A DNA stretch of 64,000 bases from Actinomycetes bacterium (lineage in GTDB: Bacteria > Actinomycetota > Acidimicrobiia > Acidimicrobiales > Ilumatobacteraceae). Shown here piece after piece: positions 53,743-64,000 of the stretch. Within the stretch, counting starts at the first letter, position 1, and each line of letters opens with the position of its first letter. Below the pieces are notes generated by a model that was given only the letters and a program-made list of their open reading frames with translations, searched no databases and was not told where the DNA came from. The DNA is taken from the NCBI GenBank assembly GCA_029782355.1, contig JAKOUY010000031.1:310001-374000 (forward strand), written 5' to 3'. The position numbers and the translations under genes were made by a program.

Positions 53743-54678
53743 ATGGCCGTAACCGCCCACCTCTACCAGATCTTCGTACGGGCCACGCCCGAGCAGGTCT
53801 GGCAGGCCATCACCGACCCTGCCTTCACCACCCGCTACTTCCACGGCACGGCGTTCACCTCGACGCTGGAGCCGGGCTCGCCGGTCCGCTACGTGATGGC
53901 TGCGGCTGACGGTGGCGGCGACGCGGTGGACGGGACCATCGAGGTGGCCGACGCCCCCAACCGTCTGGTGATGACCTGGCGCTCGTTGTACCGGGCGGAC
54001 ATGGCGGCCGAGCCACCCAGCCGGGTGGAGTGGATCGTGGAGGCCGCCGGCGACGGATTGACCCGCGTTCGAGTCGCCCACGGCGATCTGGCCAAGAGCC
54101 CGGCCACGTGGGCGGGTGTGAAGGATGGCTGGGTGTGGATTCTCGACTGCATGAAGTCGGTACTGGAGACGGGCCAGCCGCTCCCGGACTGGACGGCGGA
54201 CGCCGCGGCGACCGGTGCGTCGGCGCAGGACGTGGCCGGCGAGTGGCATCGAGCCCAGGGGATCGAGGCCAACAACTCGACGTGGGAGATGATCGAGGCC
54301 GAGCGCACGCCGGCGAACGACGAGGAGATGCTTCGCCGGGCCTACGCCGCGGCCTACCACTGGCAGCGAGCCGCCCGGCGCACCCCGGCCAACGAGGCCC
54401 GAGCCCTGTTCCTGCTGGCCCGGGCCCACTGGAAGGCCGGGGACGCCGCGGCAGCGACACGCTACGCCGACGCCTGCCTGGAGGCGGTCCAGGCCGCGGG
54501 TGACGCGTGCGCCGACTTCGACCTGGCCTACGCCTACGAGATGCAGGCCCGGGCGGCGGCGTTGCGCGGTGACGAGCAGACCTCGCTGGAGCGTTGGGCG
54601 GCGGCGAAGGCCGTGCCGATCGCCGACCCGGACGACCGGGCCATCATCGAGGCCGACTTCGCCGACGCGCCGGTCTGA
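53743..54678 (+). CDS. SRPBCC (AHSA1-like) protein with C-terminal helical repeat domain
   Basis: 311 aa. Residues 1-145 are an AHSA1-type START/SRPBCC domain: IFVRATPEQVWQAITDPAFTTRYFHG, then PNRLVMTWR and WAGVKDGWVWILDCMKSVLETG. Residues about 165-311 are helical and TPR-like (RRAYAAAYHWQRAARRTPANEARALFLLARAHWKAGD). The SRPBCC half binds hydrophobic ligands. The helical half is an unusual addition and may bind a protein. AAGGAG lies 8 nt before the ATG. Transcribed with the ArsR gene. Confidence 0.85.
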   Translation: MAVTAHLYQIFVRATPEQVWQAITDPAFTTRYFHGTAFTSTLEPGSPVRYVMAAADGGGDAVDGTIEVADAPNRLVMTWRSLYRADMAAEPPSRVEWIVEAAGDGLTRVRVAHGDLAKSPATWAGVKDGWVWILDCMKSVLETGQPLPDWTADAAATGASAQDVAGEWHRAQGIEANNSTWEMIEAERTPANDEEMLRRAYAAAYHWQRAARRTPANEARALFLLARAHWKAGDAAAATRYADACLEAVQAAGDACADFDLAYAYEMQARAAALRGDEQTSLERWAAAKAVPIADPDDRAIIEADFADAPV

Positions 54679-54687
54679 GCCCCCGGC

Positions 54688-55569
54688 TCAGGTGCCCGGC
54701 GTCGAGTCGGGCGAGGTGTCCGGGGTCGGTGGTACCGGGGCGGGCAACACGCTGACCGCCACGAAGCCGGCGTTGAACGCGTCGACGTCGTCGGTGGTCG
54801 GGGCGGGCACCGCCGACGCGCAGTCGGCCGGGGCCAGCACGGGGCGCCCGTCGTCGACCGTGCCGCCGGCGACGTCGAGGGTGCCGCGGATCGGGTGGTC
54901 GACCGGGCAGGTCGGGATGTTCATGTTGGTGAACGACACGGCGTGCGTGCCCGGGTGGAGGTCACCGCGGTGCGCCGTGATCCAGGAGAGCACCTGCGTC
55001 GCACCGCTGGCGAAGTCGAACGGCACGTCGGCCGTGGGCGGCAGGCCCTGGCTGGCGGCAATGGCCGGGATGCCGTGACGGGCCGCGGCGCGAGCTGCAC
55101 CGACGGTTCCGCTCAACTCGTTGCTCACCCAGCCGAGGTTCTGGCCGGCGTTGATGCCGGAGACGACCAGATCGGGTCGCTCGGACACGCCGTGCTGGTC
55201 GAGCGCCCAGACCACCGTGTCGGCCGGGAACCCGCCGACGGCCTTGGCCGGGTAGCCGCTGGCCGTCGCCGAGTCGACGACCAGCAGGTTGCCCGGCGTG
55301 GTCCGGTTGCCGGTGCCGCTCTGGTTGTTGGCCGGGGCGACGACGGTCACCTGCACGTCCGGCAGCGTGAGCAGGGCCTGGACCACGGCGTCGATGCCCG
55401 GTGCCTTGACCCCGTCGTCGTTGGTCACCATGATCCGCAGCGGCGCCACCGCCGGCGCGGTGGCCGAGGGCGGGGTGGTGCCGGGGACGGTGGTCCGGGC
55501 CGCAGCGGTCCCGGCGCACGCGGTGCTCAGCAGCGTGGTGGCCAGGGCCAGGCGTGCGCGACGGGTCAT
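54688..55569 (-). CDS. exported SurE-like 5'/3'-nucleotidase
   Basis: 293 aa. An N-terminal signal peptide (about 1-24) is followed by a Thr/Pro linker and a SurE domain from residue 43. Metal-site motifs are MVTNDDG, NNQSGTGN and VVSGINAGQNLG, all intact. SurE is normally a cytoplasmic survival phosphatase without a signal sequence, so export suggests scavenging of extracellular nucleotides. The C-terminus is proline- and threonine-rich. A cysteine in LLSTACAG does not form a good lipobox. The ATG has AATACT 6 nt upstream. Confidence 0.86.
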   Translation of the reverse strand: MTRRARLALATTLLSTACAGTAAARTTVPGTTPPSATAPAVAPLRIMVTNDDGVKAPGIDAVVQALLTLPDVQVTVVAPANNQSGTGNRTTPGNLLVVDSATASGYPAKAVGGFPADTVVWALDQHGVSERPDLVVSGINAGQNLGWVSNELSGTVGAARAAARHGIPAIAASQGLPPTADVPFDFASGATQVLSWITAHRGDLHPGTHAVSFTNMNIPTCPVDHPIRGTLDVAGGTVDDGRPVLAPADCASAVPAPTTDDVDAFNAGFVAVSVLPAPVPPTPDTSPDSTPGT

Positions 55570-58379: not shown

Positions 58380-59498
58380 ATGACACCTCGTGCGCTGCGC
58401 ACCCTCGCCGCGGTGTCCACGGTGGTCACCGTGGGCCTGGTCGGCGTCGCCCATGCCTCGACGCCGCCGACGCCGGCGGCCTCCGCTCCAGCATCGGCGC
58501 CGACCGCCGACGTGGCCGTCGAGCTGATGCGCCGGGCGCCGGCCGCGCTGCTGGCCGAGGGGGCGACGCTGGCCTACGTCGATCTGGCCGCGGCGTTCGA
58601 GGAGGCCGGGATGGCCGACGGCACCGCCCAGCAACGTGTCGAGGCGCTCGTCGGTCCGCTGCTGCGCGCCGGGCTGAACGTGCCGATGCTCTTCGGTGAC
58701 GACCAGCTCGACGTGCCGGGCGCGCTGGCCGATGTCGGCTTCTCGATCGTCGACATCGCCCAGGAGCTCGCCGTCGGCAGCCCGCCGCACACCGCCATGC
58801 TCGATGCGGTGAACGTCCCGCCGGGCGCGATCGACACCGCGGTCCACGCCGACCCGGTGTGGTCCGCTCGACTGACGGCGTCGGTGGACCACGGCGTGAC
58901 GGTGTACGACTGGGGCGAGCAGTTGGACATCACGGCGCGCACCCCGCTGCACTCGCTCGGTCGTGGTGGGCAGCTGGCCGTCGAGCCGAACGGCGCCGGA
59001 TCGATGGTCGCCCGCACGTTCCAAGCGACGTCGATGGCGGCGGTCCGGGCGACGGCGGCCGAGCAGTCCGTGGCACAGCGCGGGCCGTTCGTCGACGCCA
59101 TCCGCCGGCTCCCGAGCGGCCGGCTGCTGCAGGCGTTCGGTGTCGTCGCTCCCTCGACCGGCCGGCGGATGCCCATGCCGATCAACGCCACGCTCCCCGA
59201 CGCCGGTCCGACGTCGTCCGCCGCCCCGCCGGTCAGCGTGCTCGCCGCCGAGTCCGTCGACCACGCCACCCGGTTGCTGGTCACCTATGCCGACGACGCC
59301 ACCGCGGCCGCGGCGGTCGCGACCTGGCAGGCGTGGTTCGACTCGGGCACCTCGCACGTGTCCCGCCAACCGATCGCCTCGCTGTTCGCCGGGGCCACGA
59401 TCACGTCCGACGGCCCCGTCGTCATCGTCGACGTCACCGGCGAGCGGGCCTTCACCCGCCTCGATCAGATGGTGTTGGCGGCCGACCTACCCGGCTGA
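58380..59498 (+). CDS. secreted protein of unknown function
   Basis: 372 aa with a signal peptide (about 1-26, cleaved near VAHAS) and a short Pro/Ala linker. The mature part has no cysteines and two lobes of mixed alpha/beta character. Segments such as LAYVDLAAAFEEAGM and RLLVTYADDATAAAAVATWQAWF suggest ferredoxin-like repeats. No domain is recognised. ATG 58380 has TAGGGT (58367-58372) 7 nt upstream. It overlaps the end of the convergent oxidoreductase gene by 12 bp. Confidence 0.7.
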   Translation: MTPRALRTLAAVSTVVTVGLVGVAHASTPPTPAASAPASAPTADVAVELMRRAPAALLAEGATLAYVDLAAAFEEAGMADGTAQQRVEALVGPLLRAGLNVPMLFGDDQLDVPGALADVGFSIVDIAQELAVGSPPHTAMLDAVNVPPGAIDTAVHADPVWSARLTASVDHGVTVYDWGEQLDITARTPLHSLGRGGQLAVEPNGAGSMVARTFQATSMAAVRATAAEQSVAQRGPFVDAIRRLPSGRLLQAFGVVAPSTGRRMPMPINATLPDAGPTSSAAPPVSVLAAESVDHATRLLVTYADDATAAAAVATWQAWFDSGTSHVSRQPIASLFAGATITSDGPVVIVDVTGERAFTRLDQMVLAADLPG

Positions 59499-60449
59499 GC
59501 TCGCCGCCGCACGGTAGGCCTGTTCGACGATGGCGAGTGCCGTTCGGCCGACCTCCAGCGATGCCCGTGGTGTGCCGCCCGACCTGCAGCAGTGGACGAA
59601 GTCCGCCATCTGCGCGGCGTACATGGGCAGTGAGCAGTGCACGTAGTCGTCCGGGGCCGGGTGCGCCGGCGTGAACTGCGGCCAGATCCGTTCGTAGCCG
59701 GCGGTGCCGTAGACCTCGGTGTCGGCCTCGACCCCGTCCAGGCGGGGTTGCCACCATCCTGCTTCGACCACGCTGCGCACCCCATTCGACCAGTCGATGA
59801 GCACGACGGCGTCGTCGTCGACGTCGTAGGCCCCATACGCAGTCCCGATGGAGGCCTGCACTCGCACGGGCTGCGGGTCATCGAGGAGGAACCGTGTGGT
59901 GTCCACGGCGTGGATGCCCATGTCGATCAGGCTCCCGCCGCCGGCGAGGGCGGGGTCGGTGAACCACCCACCGGGTCCCCAGCCGGCGTGGATGCCGTAG
60001 CTCCTGGTGCGCACCGGACGCCCCACCGCGCCATCCCGGATCCGGTCGCGGGCGGCAACGACCTCGTCCCGATACCGCCACATGTGGCCCACCAGGACCA
60101 CCACGCCGGCCGCGCCAGCCGCAGCGGCGATGTCGTCGGCCTCGGCGACGGAGGTGGCCAGCGGCTTGTCGACGAGAACGTGCTTGCCGGCGCTGATCGC
60201 GGTCATGGTCTGGGTGTGGTGCAGCGAGTTGGGGGTGCCCACGACGACGGCGTCGATGTCCTCGGCGGTGACGGCCTCGCGCCAGTCGGTGGTGATGCGG
60301 GCGATCCCGTGGCGCGCCGCGAACTCGGCGCAGCGCGTCGCGTCGCGCCCGGCCACGACGACTGGCGTGGCACCGGCCTGGCGAGCGGCCCGCACGTGGA
60401 GGTCGGACACGAACCCGTGGCCGAGCACCGCTAGGCGCAGGGCGGTCAC
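59487..60449 (-). CDS. Gfo/Idh/MocA-family oxidoreductase
   Basis: 320 aa. NAD-binding LAVLGHGFVSDLHVRAARQ, the family signature lysine in GKHVLVDKPLATSVAEAD (the DKP motif), and the second-domain segment LAGGGSLIDMGIHAVDTTRFL with the conserved DxGxH. These enzymes oxidise or reduce hydroxyls of sugars and inositols. GTG 60449 overlaps the stop of the DegT aminotransferase (GTGA), so the long upstream frame is a shadow. Such pairs can make a keto-sugar that the aminotransferase then aminates, as RifL and RifK do for UDP-kanosamine. This is inference. Confidence 0.87.
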   Translation of the reverse strand: MTALRLAVLGHGFVSDLHVRAARQAGATPVVVAGRDATRCAEFAARHGIARITTDWREAVTAEDIDAVVVGTPNSLHHTQTMTAISAGKHVLVDKPLATSVAEADDIAAAAGAAGVVVLVGHMWRYRDEVVAARDRIRDGAVGRPVRTRSYGIHAGWGPGGWFTDPALAGGGSLIDMGIHAVDTTRFLLDDPQPVRVQASIGTAYGAYDVDDDAVVLIDWSNGVRSVVEAGWWQPRLDGVEADTEVYGTAGYERIWPQFTPAHPAPDDYVHCSLPMYAAQMADFVHCCRSGGTPRASLEVGRTALAIVEQAYRAAASSAG

Positions 60450-61690
60450 GGCATCGCCTCGCGGAGGGCGCTGGCATGGACGTGCAGCTTCTCCACCGCC
60501 CGGGCCACGTCCACGGCGTCCTCGACCGTGCCCAGCAGCAGGCGGTGCTGCAGCCAGACGGTCGTGGCCGCGGCCGCCTCTGCCCGGGGCAGGTGCAGCG
60601 TGGCGTAGCCGGCCTCGGTGAGCCGGTGGCGCAGGCGGGGAGCGAACCGTTCGCTGCGGAACACGGCCAGGTCGGTCAGCGACGGGTAGGACACGCCCAT
60701 CGGGATCCCCTCCGCGGCCAGTGCCCGCTCGAAGGCGCGCAGCGGCAGGCCGGCGAACTGGTCTGGTTCGTAGTGGAAGACGAAGCAGTAGTTGCCCTGG
60801 GAGTCCATTCGTGGATCGCGTCGTTGCGGGCGGATCCCGGGGATCTCCTGGAGCGCGGCGTTGAGCGCCACGGCGTTCCGGTTGCGACGTCGGTTCTGTT
60901 CGGGGAAGCGGTCGAGCTGAGCCTGGAGGACCGCGCCCTGCCATTCGGTCATCCGCAGGTTCGAGCCCATCGTGGCGTGGTGGTAGAACCACTCGCCCTT
61001 GACCCGCCCGCAGTCGGCGTAGGCCCACGCCGCGTCCGCCAGCTGCTCGTCCTGGCAGATCAGGACGCCCCCTTCGCCGGCGGTCATCAGCTTGGAGCGC
61101 TGCATCGAGAACGATCCGAAGTCGCCCCAGGATCCGACACCTCGCCCTCGCCAGAACGTGCCGTGGGCGTGGGCGCAGTCCTCGATCAGGCGGAGACCAC
61201 GACGTGCGCACAGCTCCGTCAGGGCGTCGAGGTCGGCGGCGCAGCCGGCAACGTGGACGACCACCACGGCCCTGGTGCGCGGCGTCACCGCGGCGTCGGC
61301 GGCGGTGACGTCCAGGCACAACGTCTCCGGATCGATGTCGACTAGGACCGGGGTGGCGTTGACGGCGAACACCGCGGACGCCGAGGCGACGAACGTCATC
61401 GCCGGCACGATCACCTCGTCGCCCTCGCCGATGTCGCAGGCGATGAGGGCGGCTTCCAGGGTGTGCGTTCCATTGGTCATCGCCAGGCCGTAGCGCGCCC
61501 CGTGGTACTCGGCGAAGTTGCGGGCGAACGTGGCCGCCACCGTTCCGTTTCCCTGCCACCATCCACCCGCCTCGAGCACCGCGTTCAGCCGGGTGCGTTC
61601 GTCGTCGTCCCACACCGGCCACGCCGGATAGTCGGTCGAGCGAACGGGCGTGCCGCCGAGCATGGCAGGGGTGTCGGCGAAGCTGGACAT
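60446..61690 (-). CDS. DegT/DnrJ/EryC1/StrS aminotransferase, AHBA-synthase/StsC-like
   Basis: 414 aa. The PLP lysine is K200 in FSMQRSKLMTAGEGG, with D171 in IEDCAHAHG. YPAWPVWDDDERTRLNAVLE, GWWQGNG, LAMTNGTHTLEAAL and MGSNLRMTEWQGAVL strongly recall the RifK/StsC subgroup that aminates cyclitols or 3-keto sugars, more than 4-keto-sugar enzymes. ATG 61690 shares a base with the preceding stop (TGATG). It is encoded between a DHQS-fold dehydrogenase and a MocA oxidoreductase in a four-gene operon. Confidence 0.87.
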   Translation of the reverse strand: MSSFADTPAMLGGTPVRSTDYPAWPVWDDDERTRLNAVLEAGGWWQGNGTVAATFARNFAEYHGARYGLAMTNGTHTLEAALIACDIGEGDEVIVPAMTFVASASAVFAVNATPVLVDIDPETLCLDVTAADAAVTPRTRAVVVVHVAGCAADLDALTELCARRGLRLIEDCAHAHGTFWRGRGVGSWGDFGSFSMQRSKLMTAGEGGVLICQDEQLADAAWAYADCGRVKGEWFYHHATMGSNLRMTEWQGAVLQAQLDRFPEQNRRRNRNAVALNAALQEIPGIRPQRRDPRMDSQGNYCFVFHYEPDQFAGLPLRAFERALAAEGIPMGVSYPSLTDLAVFRSERFAPRLRHRLTEAGYATLHLPRAEAAAATTVWLQHRLLLGTVEDAVDVARAVEKLHVHASALREAMP

Positions 61691-62700
61691 CACGACACCT
61701 GGAGCGCCCGGCGGGCGAGGTCCAGGACCCGGTCGTCGACGGTCAAGCCGTTGGCGGACGAGTACCACAGCCCCTGTTCCTCGACGAACGTCGGCAGTCG
61801 GTGCAGGGTGGCCTCGACCTCGTCCCAGGTCACGCCGAGGTCGGGGAGCGCGGTGCGCATGCGGGCGGCGTCGGCGATCCGCCGCGGCCGGCTCGGATCG
61901 TTGCCCTGCAGGGCGGCCATGACGAGCACGCCCATGGTGACCAGCTCGCCGTGCATGATGGTCCGGCCGGTGACTTCCTCGAACGTGTAGGCGAAGAAGT
62001 GCTCGCTGCCCTCTTCGAATCGGGCGTGGCCCAACTCGTGGCACCGCCACCCGATGTCGCGGTGGCACTCCATCAGCCGGCGTAACCCGTCGTCCTCGCC
62101 GGCGGCCAGCTGCGGGGAGAGCGACTCGAGCTCGTCGAGGTATGCCAGCGACATGGCCGCCTGCTCGTCGTCCCACGGAGCGTCCCGACCGGCATCGGCC
62201 CCGATGCGCCAGTCGAACCGTGCGGTGTGGCACGACAGCACATCACCGATGCCGCCGCGAACGAGTTCGGCGGGTGCGCTGGCGATGAGGTCGTAGTCGA
62301 CCAGGACGCGGACGGGGACGGCGTCGCCCTCGTAGCGCACCCCACCGGCATCGCGCAGGGCGGTCATCCGGGTGAAGCAGGCGTTGACCGACGGCAGCGA
62401 CGGGAGCTGGAACAGCGACGCGCCCGTCCGGCCGTGGACCCACTTGGCGCTGTCCATGGCCGTTCCGCCGCCGACCCCCACGACCGCCTCCACGGCCGGC
62501 AGCTCTGCCACCAACCGGTCGAGATGAGCGGGGGTCAGATCTCCCGCACTGATGACCACGGCGGGCGGGCGGCGCAGGGTCGGGGCGATGATCGCCCACG
62601 GCTCCGGGTGGGCGACCACTGCGTAGGTGCCGAGCTCGTCGACCAGGTCGGCCAGCAGCCCGCGCCCGTACTCCGTGGGGAATCCACGTGCCTCGATCAT
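61690..62700 (-). CDS. glycerol-1-phosphate dehydrogenase/AraM-like (DHQS-fold) enzyme
   Basis: 336 aa. The nucleotide-binding motif is VGVGGGTAMDSAKW. Metal ligands fit D153 (GGIGDVLSCHTARFDW), H234 (GSEHFFAY) and H250 (IMHGELVTMG). This set matches sn-glycerol-1-phosphate dehydrogenase (EgsA/AraM) and, more distantly, dehydroquinate and deoxy-inosose synthases. The domestic context with an aminotransferase and a MocA enzyme favours a carbohydrate or cyclitol substrate over archaeal-type lipid synthesis. ATG 62700 overlaps the stop of the PIG-L gene (ATGA). Confidence 0.8.
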   Translation of the reverse strand: MIEARGFPTEYGRGLLADLVDELGTYAVVAHPEPWAIIAPTLRRPPAVVISAGDLTPAHLDRLVAELPAVEAVVGVGGGTAMDSAKWVHGRTGASLFQLPSLPSVNACFTRMTALRDAGGVRYEGDAVPVRVLVDYDLIASAPAELVRGGIGDVLSCHTARFDWRIGADAGRDAPWDDEQAAMSLAYLDELESLSPQLAAGEDDGLRRLMECHRDIGWRCHELGHARFEEGSEHFFAYTFEEVTGRTIMHGELVTMGVLVMAALQGNDPSRPRRIADAARMRTALPDLGVTWDEVEATLHRLPTFVEEQGLWYSSANGLTVDDRVLDLARRALQVS

Positions 62701-63599
62701 CCGTCCTCCGTCCCAGCATCCGACCGCCGCCGGCCGGCCTCGGCGAGCCACCCCTCCAGCCCACCGAAGCGGACCACGCGGAACACCTCGGCGGCAGTCA
62801 ACCCGTACCGTGCCCCGACGGCAGCCGACCCGCGGCGCACCAGCATCTCGACGACGGCCCGGACGTCCCCACCGGACAGTGCCTGGTCGACCGCATCGAT
62901 CTCCCATCCGCCGGTGGCGGCCTGGAGCTGGAGCTGGCGCAGGTAGTTGCGCATCATCGTCTGATGGGCACAGGCGGCGTCCACCTTGCGGTCGATGGTG
63001 GCGGAGATGTCGACGACGTCGGTGATCTCCATCACCCGCCGACCGAAGTACCACCGTTCGAAGCAGCCGTGTGGGCGGAGCCCGTCGTCGAAATGCTCGG
63101 GGTGGTGCAGGTCGAACTGGCTGGTCCAGAACGACTCGTCGACCGCGGCGGCCACCAGCACATGGTCCTGGTTGTCCTCGCCGTAGTGGGCGAACGGATC
63201 GAAGGTGACCAGGGCGTACGGTCGATGGCGGCGCACCTCGCGGATGATCCGCTCGCGCAGGCCGACCTCGCTGGCGTCACCGAGCATGTCGGTCGGATAG
63301 CCGAACTCGACGACCTCGCTGACGCCCAGCCGCTCGGCGGCGAGGCGGAACTCGGCGGCGTTGCGCGCCGCGGCCTGCTCCATCGTCAGTCCGTGGGCAT
63401 CGCGGGCGTCGTCGGTGACCCGGACGACCACCACCCGCCAGCCCAGCTCGGCCCAGCGGGCCACCGTCCCGCCGAGGAACAGGGCGACGTCATCCGCATG
63501 GGCGACGACGACGAGGACGACGCGGCCATTGCCGGCTTCGAGCTGTCGGACACCGTCGGGCAAGACCCGCACCGTAGTCGCTCGAGCGGATTTCGACAA
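62697..63599 (-). CDS. PIG-L family deacetylase
   Basis: About 300 aa. The zinc motif is AHADD at VVAHADDVALFLGG (normally PHPDD), and the distal histidine is in EDNQDHVLVA. Family members remove acetyl groups from GlcNAc-type substrates (MshB, mycothiol conjugate amidase, BshB). The P to A change in the AHADD motif is mild. The start is uncertain: TTG 63599 is the longest, while GTG 63572 is also possible. First gene of the sugar operon, divergent from the solute-binding protein gene. Confidence 0.82.
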   Translation of the reverse strand: MSKSARATTVRVLPDGVRQLEAGNGRVVLVVVAHADDVALFLGGTVARWAELGWRVVVVRVTDDARDAHGLTMEQAAARNAAEFRLAAERLGVSEVVEFGYPTDMLGDASEVGLRERIIREVRRHRPYALVTFDPFAHYGEDNQDHVLVAAAVDESFWTSQFDLHHPEHFDDGLRPHGCFERWYFGRRVMEITDVVDISATIDRKVDAACAHQTMMRNYLRQLQLQAATGGWEIDAVDQALSGGDVRAVVEMLVRRGSAAVGARYGLTAAEVFRVVRFGGLEGWLAEAGRRRSDAGTEDG

Positions 63600-63609
63600 C
63601 AGTGTTGAC
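63595..63609. promoter_or_regulatory. palindrome between divergent sugar operon and binding-protein gene
   Basis: GACAACA-G-TGTTGAC: 6 of the 7 arm positions are complementary. It overlaps the TTG start option of the PIG-L gene and lies 60-74 bp before the solute-binding protein ATG. TACGCT (63623-63628) would be that gene's -10. It is a candidate shared operator. Confidence 0.5.
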
Positions 63610-63668
63610 AGAATTGCTACGCTGGGTGTGCCGTCGCATCGGCGGGGGCGACCGACAAGGGGGTTCCG

Positions 63669-64000
63669 ATGACAGGCAACATCCGTTCAGCCCGGTGGCG
63701 GGGCATGGCGCTGGCCGTGGTGGCCACGCTCGGGTTCGGTGCCACGGCCACCGCCCACGGTCCGCTCGCCGGGTCGACACCACCGACCTCCGGCTCGGCC
63801 GGCGCCGGTGCGGCGAGCTCGTGCGGAACCGTGGGCGACGCCGGGAGCATCAACGTCTTCCTGATCCCCAGCCCGTCGTCGACGGCGATCCAGTCGTTCA
63901 TCCCGGCCTTCGAGCAGAAGACCTGCATCAAGGTCAACTTCTCCGAGACGCCGTACGGCGAGGCCCACCAGAAGCAGTTGCTGGCCTACCAGCAGGGCGA
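63669..64000 (+). CDS. ABC transporter solute-binding protein (partial, cut by window end)
   Basis: The first 110 codons are present. A signal peptide (about 1-30) is followed by a linker and the start of a family 1 extracellular binding protein: INVFLIPSPSSTAIQSFIPAFEQKTCIKVNFSETPYGEAHQKQLLAY. This resembles sugar-binding proteins of CUT1-type transporters. AAGGGGG lies 5 nt before ATG 63669, so unlike many neighbours it has a ribosome site and leader. Transporter permeases presumably follow outside the window. Divergence from the amino-sugar operon suggests that its ligand is a substrate of those enzymes. Confidence 0.8.
   Translation, partial: MTGNIRSARWRGMALAVVATLGFGATATAHGPLAGSTPPTSGSAGAGAASSCGTVGDAGSINVFLIPSPSSTAIQSFIPAFEQKTCIKVNFSETPYGEAHQKQLLAYQQG

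What the first reader, a model, noticed from the sequence alone, without database searches (positions are those of the whole stretch)
59487..64000. Candidate amino-sugar/aminocyclitol module linked to uptake
PIG-L deacetylase, a glycerol-1-phosphate dehydrogenase/DHQS-fold enzyme, an AHBA-synthase/StsC-like aminotransferase and a MocA oxidoreductase overlap by 1-4 bp in one operon, divergent from a sugar-binding protein. RifL/RifK use the same two last families to make UDP-kanosamine, and StsC-type enzymes aminate keto-inositols. The set with an AraM-like enzyme and PIG-L does not match a pathway I know. It could build or dismantle an unusual amino sugar.
Basis: partly seen in the sequence, partly recalled or inferred. 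Interest (0 to 1): 0.66.

Follow-up and report, generated by a model that had tools for sequence, protein, structure and literature searches.

The report
Candidate amino-sugar breakdown operon
A bacterium carries two back-to-back gene sets that appear to import an unusual acylated amino sugar, strip its acyl and amino groups and feed the rest into metabolism; the same enzyme combination recurs in other uncultured bacteria, and I found no description of it.

Summary
PIG-L, AraM-like (AraM1), DegT and MocA genes overlap by 4, 1 and 4 bp on the minus strand. Past 64000 the divergent operon continues: sugar-binding protein, two permeases, ROK regulator, a second AraM-like enzyme, ABC ATPase.

It is a conserved cassette. 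Of 395 genomes of the class, 13 have strong AraM matches; all 13 have a DegT of this type on the same contig within 9 kb (six of the 13 supplied rows of the AraM profile; the other seven did not). PIG-L is in 23 of 28 AraM loci against 1 of 58 DegT loci without AraM.

Neighbours favour breakdown over synthesis: importers, glycoside hydrolases, amide hydrolases, kinase-like and, in some loci, GlcN-6-P-deaminase-like genes. The genome has a separate NagA/NagB-II-like regulon, so the substrate is probably not plain GlcNAc.

The DegT groups apart from RifK and BtrS/RbmB; AraM1 resembles G1PDH/GldA more than DHQS. Best reading: deacylation, amine removal by DegT, ketone reduction. Substrate and direction are untested. 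New variant of a known kind.

The parts
59487..60449 (-). MocA: Gfo/Idh/MocA oxidoreductase, 320 aa, last gene of the minus operon
   Evidence: PF01408 84.5 bits, PF22725 84.3 bits; K95, P96, D176, H180 invariant in 9 rows
60446..61690 (-). DegT: PLP aminotransferase of the AHBA-synthase / DOI-aminotransferase type, 414 aa
   Evidence: PF01041 307 bits; best PDB matches 1b9h 259 bits, 5w71 243, 2c7t 243; K200 invariant in 17 rows; model Z 48.2 to 2c81
61690..62700 (-). AraM1: G1PDH/GldA-type NAD(P)-dependent dehydrogenase, 336 aa
   Evidence: PF13685 36 bits; model pLDDT 92.9, Z 33.7 to B. subtilis AraM 9h4x; D153, H234, H250 invariant in 17 rows
62697..63599 (-). PIG-L N-deacetylase; start either TTG 63599 or, more likely, GTG 63572
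   Evidence: PF02585 71.8 bits; H34, D36, D37, H146 invariant in 11 rows; start codons
63595..63609 (.). palindrome GACAACAGTGTTG(AC), possible operator of the ROK regulator, at or just upstream of the PIG-L start
   Evidence: only place in the window with GACAACANTGTTG at up to 1 mismatch (two overlapping matches, one per strand; 0.04 expected); function not tested
63669..64000 (+). sugar-binding protein of the ABC importer (whole gene 63669-65009); the operon goes on outside the window with permeases 65019-65939 and 65936-66772, ROK regulator 66769-68007, AraM2 68004-69059, ATPase 69059-70219
   Evidence: PF01547 151.8 bits; extension L008

Best explanation
The locus is one regulon for taking up and dismantling an N-acylated amino sugar, or a small glycoside that contains one, other than ordinary GlcNAc. 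The ABC importer brings it in and the ROK protein senses it and controls both operons (inferred). PIG-L removes the acyl group from the nitrogen (inferred from family). DegT then passes the exposed amine to a keto acid, i.e. it works in the degradative direction, and leaves a ketone (inferred). AraM1/AraM2 and MocA reduce or rearrange the keto intermediate with NAD(P)(H) (inferred). The product is phosphorylated and enters glycolysis, in some relatives through a GlcN-6-P-deaminase-like enzyme (gene presence shown, activity inferred), which suggests that DegT removes an amine other than the C-2 amine of glucosamine. Shown here: gene order, conserved presumed catalytic residues, co-occurrence, catabolic-looking neighbours.
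For: ABC importer, ROK regulator and second AraM in the divergent operon. All 13 of 395 class genomes with AraM over 440 bits have a DegT match on the same contig, 0.01-8.9 kb away; 7 of these 13 were not among the rows of the AraM profile. Of 28 AraM loci: PIG-L 23, MocA 16, importer genes 12, ROK 11, ceramidase-like 11, glycoside hydrolase 10; of 58 DegT loci without AraM: PIG-L 1, MocA 15, importer genes 3, ROK 3, ceramidase-like 13, glycoside hydrolase 5. Similar layout in G415 of another class of the phylum. Best NCBIfam matches of neighbours: GlcN-6-P deaminase for L015 (279 bits, cut-off 326), NagB-II for L028 SIS (191, cut-off 430). GH4, GH20, GH35 and a BadF-type kinase in relatives. 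A separate NagA/NagB-II-like regulon on contig C12 of the window genome. In L142 a weak AraM relative sits with an importer, a ceramidase-like protein and a DgaE-type ammonia lyase, another amine-removing PLP enzyme.
Against: The characterised relatives nearest to this DegT make amino compounds (AHBA synthase, BtrR/S, RbmB); no degradative DegT is shown. DegT next to PF01408 proteins is common (15,139 occurrences, passage of PMC10949010). MocA is missing from 12 of 28 AraM loci and NagB/SIS/BadF-type genes are found in only 10 of 28 (some contigs are short). The SIS protein of G415 matches GlmS (99 bits) better than NagB-II (71). The window locus has no deaminase of its own and its ROK has an HTH, so it is more likely a regulator than a kinase. 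Two of the 13 class genomes (G242, G137) have a DegT from another branch of the tree (L130, L131). Some relatives have MlrC-type, amidase or beta-lactamase-family neighbours of unclear role. The AraM step has no assigned chemistry.
Confidence: 0.5

Rival explanations
1. Catabolism of a pseudo-disaccharide in which GlcNAc is joined to an aminocyclitol or inositol: PIG-L deacetylates the GlcNAc half, and DegT with AraM/MocA deaminates and oxidises or reduces the cyclitol half, the reverse of 2-deoxystreptamine or inosamine synthesis.
For: DegT model tied best with BtrR/S and RbmB (Z 47.8-48.2); best NCBIfam match of MocA is inositol 2-dehydrogenase (127 bits, below the cut-off of 355); GH4-type glycosidases in 8 of 28 AraM loci.
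Against: AHBA synthase ties with BtrR/S and the tree separates the clade from both. No inositol-catabolism genes were recognised among the ten genes of the two operons.
Confidence: 0.2
2. Biosynthesis: MocA oxidises a free or activated sugar, DegT aminates it (kanosamine-like), and PIG-L and AraM tailor it; the importer supplies the precursor or recovers the product.
For: RifL/RifK and Hyg17/Hyg8 precedents (passages of PMC8788734 and PMC10949010); DegT-MocA pairs are common in biosynthesis.
Against: Glycoside hydrolases, amide hydrolases and deaminase-like genes in relatives; no glycosyltransferase, nucleotidyltransferase or phosphatase among the nine of ten operon genes scanned with Pfam; MocA is absent from 12 of 28 AraM loci.
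Confidence: 0.15
3. Two adjacent modules with separate tasks: an importer for one sugar and an unrelated PIG-L/AraM/DegT/MocA pathway.
For: Importer genes are found in only 12 of 28 AraM loci; some loci have other transporters or none recognised.
Against: The importer operon itself carries an AraM paralogue between ROK and ATPase; in L028, L132 and G415 the importer operon lies back to back with PIG-L as in the window.
Confidence: 0.1

Closest known systems
RifL/RifK (UDP-kanosamine) and AHBA synthase of the aminoshikimate pathway
   Same: oxidoreductase paired with a DegT of the AHBA-synthase type; the rif set also has a kanosamine kinase, RifN (PMC8788734 passages)
   Different: DegT groups apart from RifK; no aminoDAHP/aminoDHQ synthase or phosphatase seen in the two operons; importer and catabolic neighbours
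2-deoxystreptamine/paromamine genes (BtrR/S-type aminotransferase with DOI synthase; the PIG-L deacetylase of that pathway is recalled)
   Same: DegT model tied best with BtrR/S and RbmB; PIG-L and an enzyme of the DHQS/Fe-ADH superfamily are present
   Different: AraM1 is dehydrogenase-like rather than DHQS-like; no glycosyltransferase seen in the operons; uptake system present
NagA/NagB and NagB-II catabolism of GlcNAc
   Same: importer, ROK protein, N-deacylation, GlcN-6-P-deaminase-like neighbours in some relatives
   Different: PIG-L in place of NagA; additional DegT, AraM and MocA; the window genome has a separate NagA/NagB-II-like regulon on C12
GnnA/GnnB (UDP-GlcNAc3N for lipid A)
   Same: oxidation and then transamination at C-3 of UDP-GlcNAc (PMC5644692 passages); their protein families (MocA, DegT) are recalled
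   Different: biosynthetic and UDP-bound; no such partner genes seen in the two operons
AraM/EgsA glycerol-1-phosphate dehydrogenase
   Same: fold and presumed metal ligands
   Different: 91 and 111 bits against an equivalog cut-off of 413; the strong matches in the class sample all lie near DegT

Membership tests
Glycerol-1-phosphate dehydrogenase (AraM/EgsA) | Fe-ADH_2 domain and Fe-ADH/G1PDH fold | tested here: met
   PF13685 36.0 (AraM1) and 53.1 (AraM2) against cut-off 28; AraM1 model Z 33.7 to 9h4x, rmsd 3.2, 320 aligned
Glycerol-1-phosphate dehydrogenase (AraM/EgsA) | Asp-His-His metal ligands (roles recalled) | tested here: met
   D153, H234, H250 invariant in 17 rows, aligned with the GxGD, GSEH and HGE stretches of G1PDH
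Glycerol-1-phosphate dehydrogenase (AraM/EgsA) | curated equivalog score NF002022 | tested here: not met
   91.1 and 110.8 bits against 413
Glycerol-1-phosphate dehydrogenase (AraM/EgsA) | reduction of DHAP to G1P | not testable with these tools
   needs an enzyme assay
3-dehydroquinate / 2-deoxy-scyllo-inosose synthase | match to DHQ synthase families | tested here: not met
   no DHQ-synthase Pfam match at E 0.001 for either AraM; NCBIfam aroB 20.4 bits for AraM2 against 305; best DHQS structure Z 25.6 against 33.7 for AraM
AHBA synthase (RifK) | DegT fold with catalytic Lys (role recalled) | tested here: met
   PF01041 307 bits; K200 invariant and aligned to the RifK Lys; Z 47.7 to 1b9i
AHBA synthase (RifK) | groups with RifK in a tree | tested here: not met
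   the window's DegT clade does not contain RifK, which is a separate long branch (100 sequences, FastTree, midpoint root, support values not examined)
AHBA synthase (RifK) | aminoshikimate partner genes (RifG, RifH, RifJ, RifM) in the locus | tested here: not met
   ten genes in the two operons, nine scanned with Pfam, none of this kind; the rest of the genome was not searched for them
DOI / scyllo-inosose aminotransferase (BtrR/S, RbmB, StsC) | sequence and fold similarity | tested here: met
   5w71 243 bits, 2c7t 243, 5w70 234; Z 47.8-48.2; tied with AHBA synthase, so it does not discriminate
DOI / scyllo-inosose aminotransferase (BtrR/S, RbmB, StsC) | same clade as BtrS/RbmB | tested here: not met
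   BtrS and RbmB group together on another branch; StsC not included
PIG-L N-deacetylase | PF02585 above cut-off and HxDD...H residues (roles recalled) | tested here: met
   71.8 bits against 28.2; H34, D36, D37, H146 invariant in 11 rows
MshB / BshB thiol-cofactor deacetylases | curated equivalog scores | tested here: not met
   TIGR03445 26.4 against 224.35; TIGR04001 68.6 against 182.5
Gfo/Idh/MocA oxidoreductase | N- and C-terminal domains with KP and D..H residues (roles recalled) | tested here: met
   PF01408, PF22725; K95, P96, D176, H180 invariant in 9 rows
Inositol 2-dehydrogenase (IolG) | curated equivalog score TIGR04380 | tested here: not met
   127 bits against 355
Canonical GlcNAc catabolism (NagA/NagB) | NagA and NagB in the locus | tested here: not met
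   not among the genes of the two operons; NagA-like 191.7 bits (cut-off 225.65) and NagB-II-like 196.6 bits (cut-off 430) proteins lie on contig C12
Gnn-type diamino-sugar enzymes | action at C-3 of a GlcNAc derivative | not testable with these tools
   needs assays with GlcNAc3N / GlcN3N

The most novel reading that the evidence does not exclude
An undescribed degradative pathway for amino sugars with an amine outside C-2, for example 2,3-diamino-2,3-dideoxyglucose released from lipid A, or a 3-amino sugar. Acyl groups are removed by PIG-L (and ceramidase-like hydrolases in some relatives), a DegT transaminase works in reverse and leaves a 3-keto (or other keto) sugar, the AraM/MocA dehydrogenases restore the hydroxyl, and the glucosamine or glucose formed enters glycolysis. 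It would be the catabolic mirror of GnnA/GnnB or RifL/RifK.
Probability: 0.17. Interest if true: 0.75.

Novelty: new variant of a known kind. Interest (0 to 1): 0.55.

Why it matters
DegT/DnrJ/EryC1/StrS transaminases are known, as far as I recall, as builders of amino sugars. A conserved set of genes that couples one to an importer, deacylases and glycosidases suggests a degradative use, and a route by which bacteria, most of them known here only from metagenome assemblies, may recycle nitrogen-rich cell-envelope or antibiotic sugars. It would also give a function to a clade of G1PDH-like dehydrogenases that automatic annotation would otherwise name after ether-lipid synthesis.

Tried and rejected
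Considered and rejected or left weak: (1) RifK/RifL kanosamine synthesis: DegT groups apart and no partner genes in the operons. (2) DOI-synthase/2-DOS biosynthesis: AraM1 is not DHQS-like. (3) G1P ether-lipid synthesis: equivalog scores far below cut-off; no prenyltransferase among the operon genes scanned. (4) The locus as the cell's ordinary GlcNAc pathway: a separate NagA/NagB-II-like regulon exists. The only PF01182 protein of the genome lies beside a frame I read by eye as glucose-6-phosphate isomerase and is therefore probably 6-phosphogluconolactonase. (5) A conserved ROK operator: a simple AACA-n-TGTT search near profile genes found nothing like it at PIG-L or the importer in the other loci, only one beside the ceramidase-like gene of the closely related L029 and L032. 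(6) Ceramidase-like and MocA genes as cassette-specific: they are also frequent near DegTs without AraM (13 and 15 of 58). In L015 and L018 the ceramidase-like protein has no Pfam match and was assigned only by my profile. (7) SIS- and NagB-type proteins as proven deaminases: scores lie below the curated cut-offs, and the SIS protein of G415 is nearer to GlmS. (8) The GH2 label rests on a sub-cut-off match (19.9 bits, cut-off 21).

Counting choices and limits. One search kept the best 80 of 518 relatives (79 loci), so the counts are not a random sample. The 1 of 58 with PIG-L is L016, whose contig ends before an AraM could be seen. In the class sample the AraM profile (A2, 17 rows) was built from AraMs found near DegT; six of the 13 genomes supplied rows (G000, G356, G188, G229, G056, G015, matched by contig), the other seven (G095, G291, G295, G242, G137, G317, G226) did not, and all seven are linked. 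The DegT of G295 and of G317 is cut by a contig end (271 and 358 bits). The DegTs of G242 and G137 (381 and 374 bits) fall on another branch of the tree (L130, L131); those of G295 and G317 were too short for the tree and that of G415 came after it. Four weaker AraM matches (G277, G227, G338, G042; 150-201 bits) are not in the 13; three were fetched (L140-L142) and none has a DegT of this type nearby (L140 has a distant one, 165 bits); G338 was not fetched. DegT matches of 358 bits or more occur in 15 genomes, of which three (G215, G020, G185) lack AraM. The phylum sample of 296 gave AraM (E up to 1e-80) in the window genome and one other. My gene caller is crude; profile searches on stop-to-stop frames were used for counts.

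Paper searches that showed nothing on this set of genes. Only the open-licence library was searched, and (15 of 61; 12 of 6,226) listed only part of their hits. Searches were background listings. I saw passages of PMC5644692, PMC8788734 and PMC10949010; no paper was read whole.

Full report
What is there. The window is contig C19:310001-374000 of a 3.8 Mb, 40-contig genome. At its right end four minus-strand genes overlap: PIG-L (62697 to 63572 or 63599), AraM1 (61690-62700), DegT (60446-61690) and MocA (59487-60449), with overlaps of 4, 1 and 4 bp. I fetched the rest of the contig. The divergent plus operon reads: sugar-binding protein 63669-65009, permeases 65019-65939 and 65936-66772, a ROK protein with an N-terminal HTH 66769-68007, a second AraM-like enzyme 68004-69059 and an ABC ATPase of the MalK/UgpC type 69059-70219 (the second permease was assigned by position and by its relatives, not by a Pfam scan). 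From the first permease to the ATPase the genes overlap by 4, 4, 4 and 1 bp. Near the PIG-L start lies the only GACAACAnTGTTG-type palindrome of the window, a plausible operator, not tested. After the ATPase come small genes that I read by eye as a toxin-antitoxin pair.

Each enzyme. All four families score above Pfam cut-offs, and presumed catalytic residues are invariant among the relatives aligned (DegT K200 in 17 rows; AraM D153/H234/H250 in 17; PIG-L H34/D36/D37/H146 in 11; MocA K95/H180 in 9); the catalytic roles are recalled. None of the four, nor AraM2 or the ROK protein, reaches a curated NCBIfam score. By sequence the DegT is nearest to AHBA synthase and the 2-deoxy-scyllo-inosose aminotransferases; by modelled structure these are tied (Z 47.5-48.2; model pLDDT 87.4). 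AraM1 (model pLDDT 92.9) matches B. subtilis AraM, archaeal G1PDH and glycerol dehydrogenases (Z 27-34) better than DHQS (25.6 or lower): probably a dehydrogenase rather than a cyclase.

A conserved cassette. A scan of GTDB contigs with the DegT gave 79 loci (the best 80 of 518 hits). After profile annotation, 28 non-duplicate loci carry an AraM over 400 bits. All 28 have a DegT match, which is by construction for those found with DegT; 23 have PIG-L, 16 MocA, 12 importer genes, 11 ROK, 11 a ceramidase-like protein, 10 a glycoside hydrolase. Of 58 DegT loci without AraM, 1 has PIG-L, 15 MocA, 13 ceramidase-like, 3 importer genes, 3 ROK and 5 glycoside hydrolase. So PIG-L and AraM are specific to each other; MocA and ceramidase-like genes are not. 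A less biased test is the class sample: of 395 genomes, 13 carry an AraM over 440 bits, and all 13 have a DegT match on the same contig 0.01 to 8.9 kb away. Six of the 13 had supplied rows of the AraM profile, seven had not, and all seven are linked. In two of the 13 (G242, G137) the DegT is from another branch of the tree, and in two (G295, G317) it is cut by a contig end. Four weaker AraM matches (150-201 bits) are not linked to such a DegT in the three cases looked at (L140-L142). One further case from elsewhere in the phylum (G415) shows importer and ROK back to back with PIG-L, then AraM, MocA, ROK, DegT, a SIS protein and an ATPase. Loci in MAGs titled Alphaproteobacteria and Pseudomonadales also hold PIG-L, DegT and AraM, the latter with an MFS sugar transporter beside them. 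AraM1 and AraM2 belong to two clades; both occur together in the window locus and in L028.

Direction. In relatives the neighbours look catabolic: ABC importers, GH35, GH4 and GH20 proteins, weakly supported GH2-like proteins, a BadF-type kinase, amidases and ceramidase-like hydrolases. L015 holds a protein whose best match is GlcN-6-P deaminase (279 bits, cut-off 326); L028 a SIS protein whose best match is NagB-II (191, cut-off 430); the SIS protein of G415 is nearer to GlmS (99) than to NagB-II (71). NagB and NagB-II are unrelated families (recalled), so their appearance near the same cassette hints that the pathway ends in an amino sugar 6-phosphate, and hence that DegT removes another amine. 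That last step is inference, and such genes (NagB, SIS or BadF type) are seen in only 10 of 28 loci. The window genome has a separate regulon on contig C12 with NagA-like and NagB-II-like proteins, a ROK protein, a GntR/UTRA regulator and its own importer, so the cassette probably serves something other than GlcNAc. In L142 a weak AraM relative (156 bits) sits with an importer, a ceramidase-like protein, a DHDPS-family protein and a DgaE-type ammonia lyase: another amine-removing PLP enzyme in a comparable place.

Against this reading. The characterised relatives nearest to this DegT are biosynthetic. DegT near PF01408 proteins is common (15,139 occurrences according to a passage of PMC10949010). 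MocA, kinase and deaminase are not constant. The window locus lacks a deaminase of its own. Some loci have MlrC-, amidase- or beta-lactamase-family neighbours whose role is unclear.

Verdict. Real, conserved, and not described in what six searches of the open-licence library showed (two of them with capped lists). Most likely uptake and breakdown of an unusual N-acyl amino sugar by deacylation, transamination and ketone reduction (0.5). The substrate cannot be named from sequence; a diamino sugar of the GlcN3N type or another amino sugar with an amine outside C-2 is the boldest candidate that fits (0.17).

Noticed in passing
L151:8542-17510 (contig C12 of the window genome): A second amino-sugar-type regulon in the same genome: SBP, two permeases, ROK protein, GntR/UTRA regulator, SIS_2 protein, NagB-II-like SIS protein, ATPase, and a divergent NagA-like deacetylase.
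   Followed up: partly
L142:4148-15455: Importer, ceramidase-like protein, weak AraM relative, DHDPS-family protein, DgaE-type PLP ammonia lyase and DUF4838 protein: looks like a sister catabolic locus with a different amine-removing enzyme.
   Followed up: partly
22 of 80 loci (e.g. L032:5226-6623, L044:4494-5786): Ceramidase_alk (PF04734)-like proteins recur beside AHBA-synthase-like DegTs in MAGs titled Lentisphaerae, Bathyarchaeota, Verrucomicrobia and others; possibly N-acyl amino-sugar amidases.
   Followed up: partly
L015:4389-6503 and L018:1533-3473: Two large proteins conserved in five loci near PIG-L and NagB-type genes, with no Pfam match.
   Followed up: no
L022:9192-10010: An aminoglycoside 3-N-acetyltransferase-family gene directly before a DegT of this clade, in a locus where no AraM or PIG-L was found.
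   Followed up: no
L017, L035: Record titles name Bifidobacterium breve and Klebsiella pneumoniae for these MAG contigs; given their closest relatives in this set the labels look wrong.
   Followed up: no
window 54688-55569: Frame read by eye as a SurE-like nucleotidase with an N-terminal signal-like stretch.
   Followed up: no
window 53743-54678: Frame that by eye joins an SRPBCC/AHSA1-like domain to a TPR-like C-terminus.
   Followed up: no
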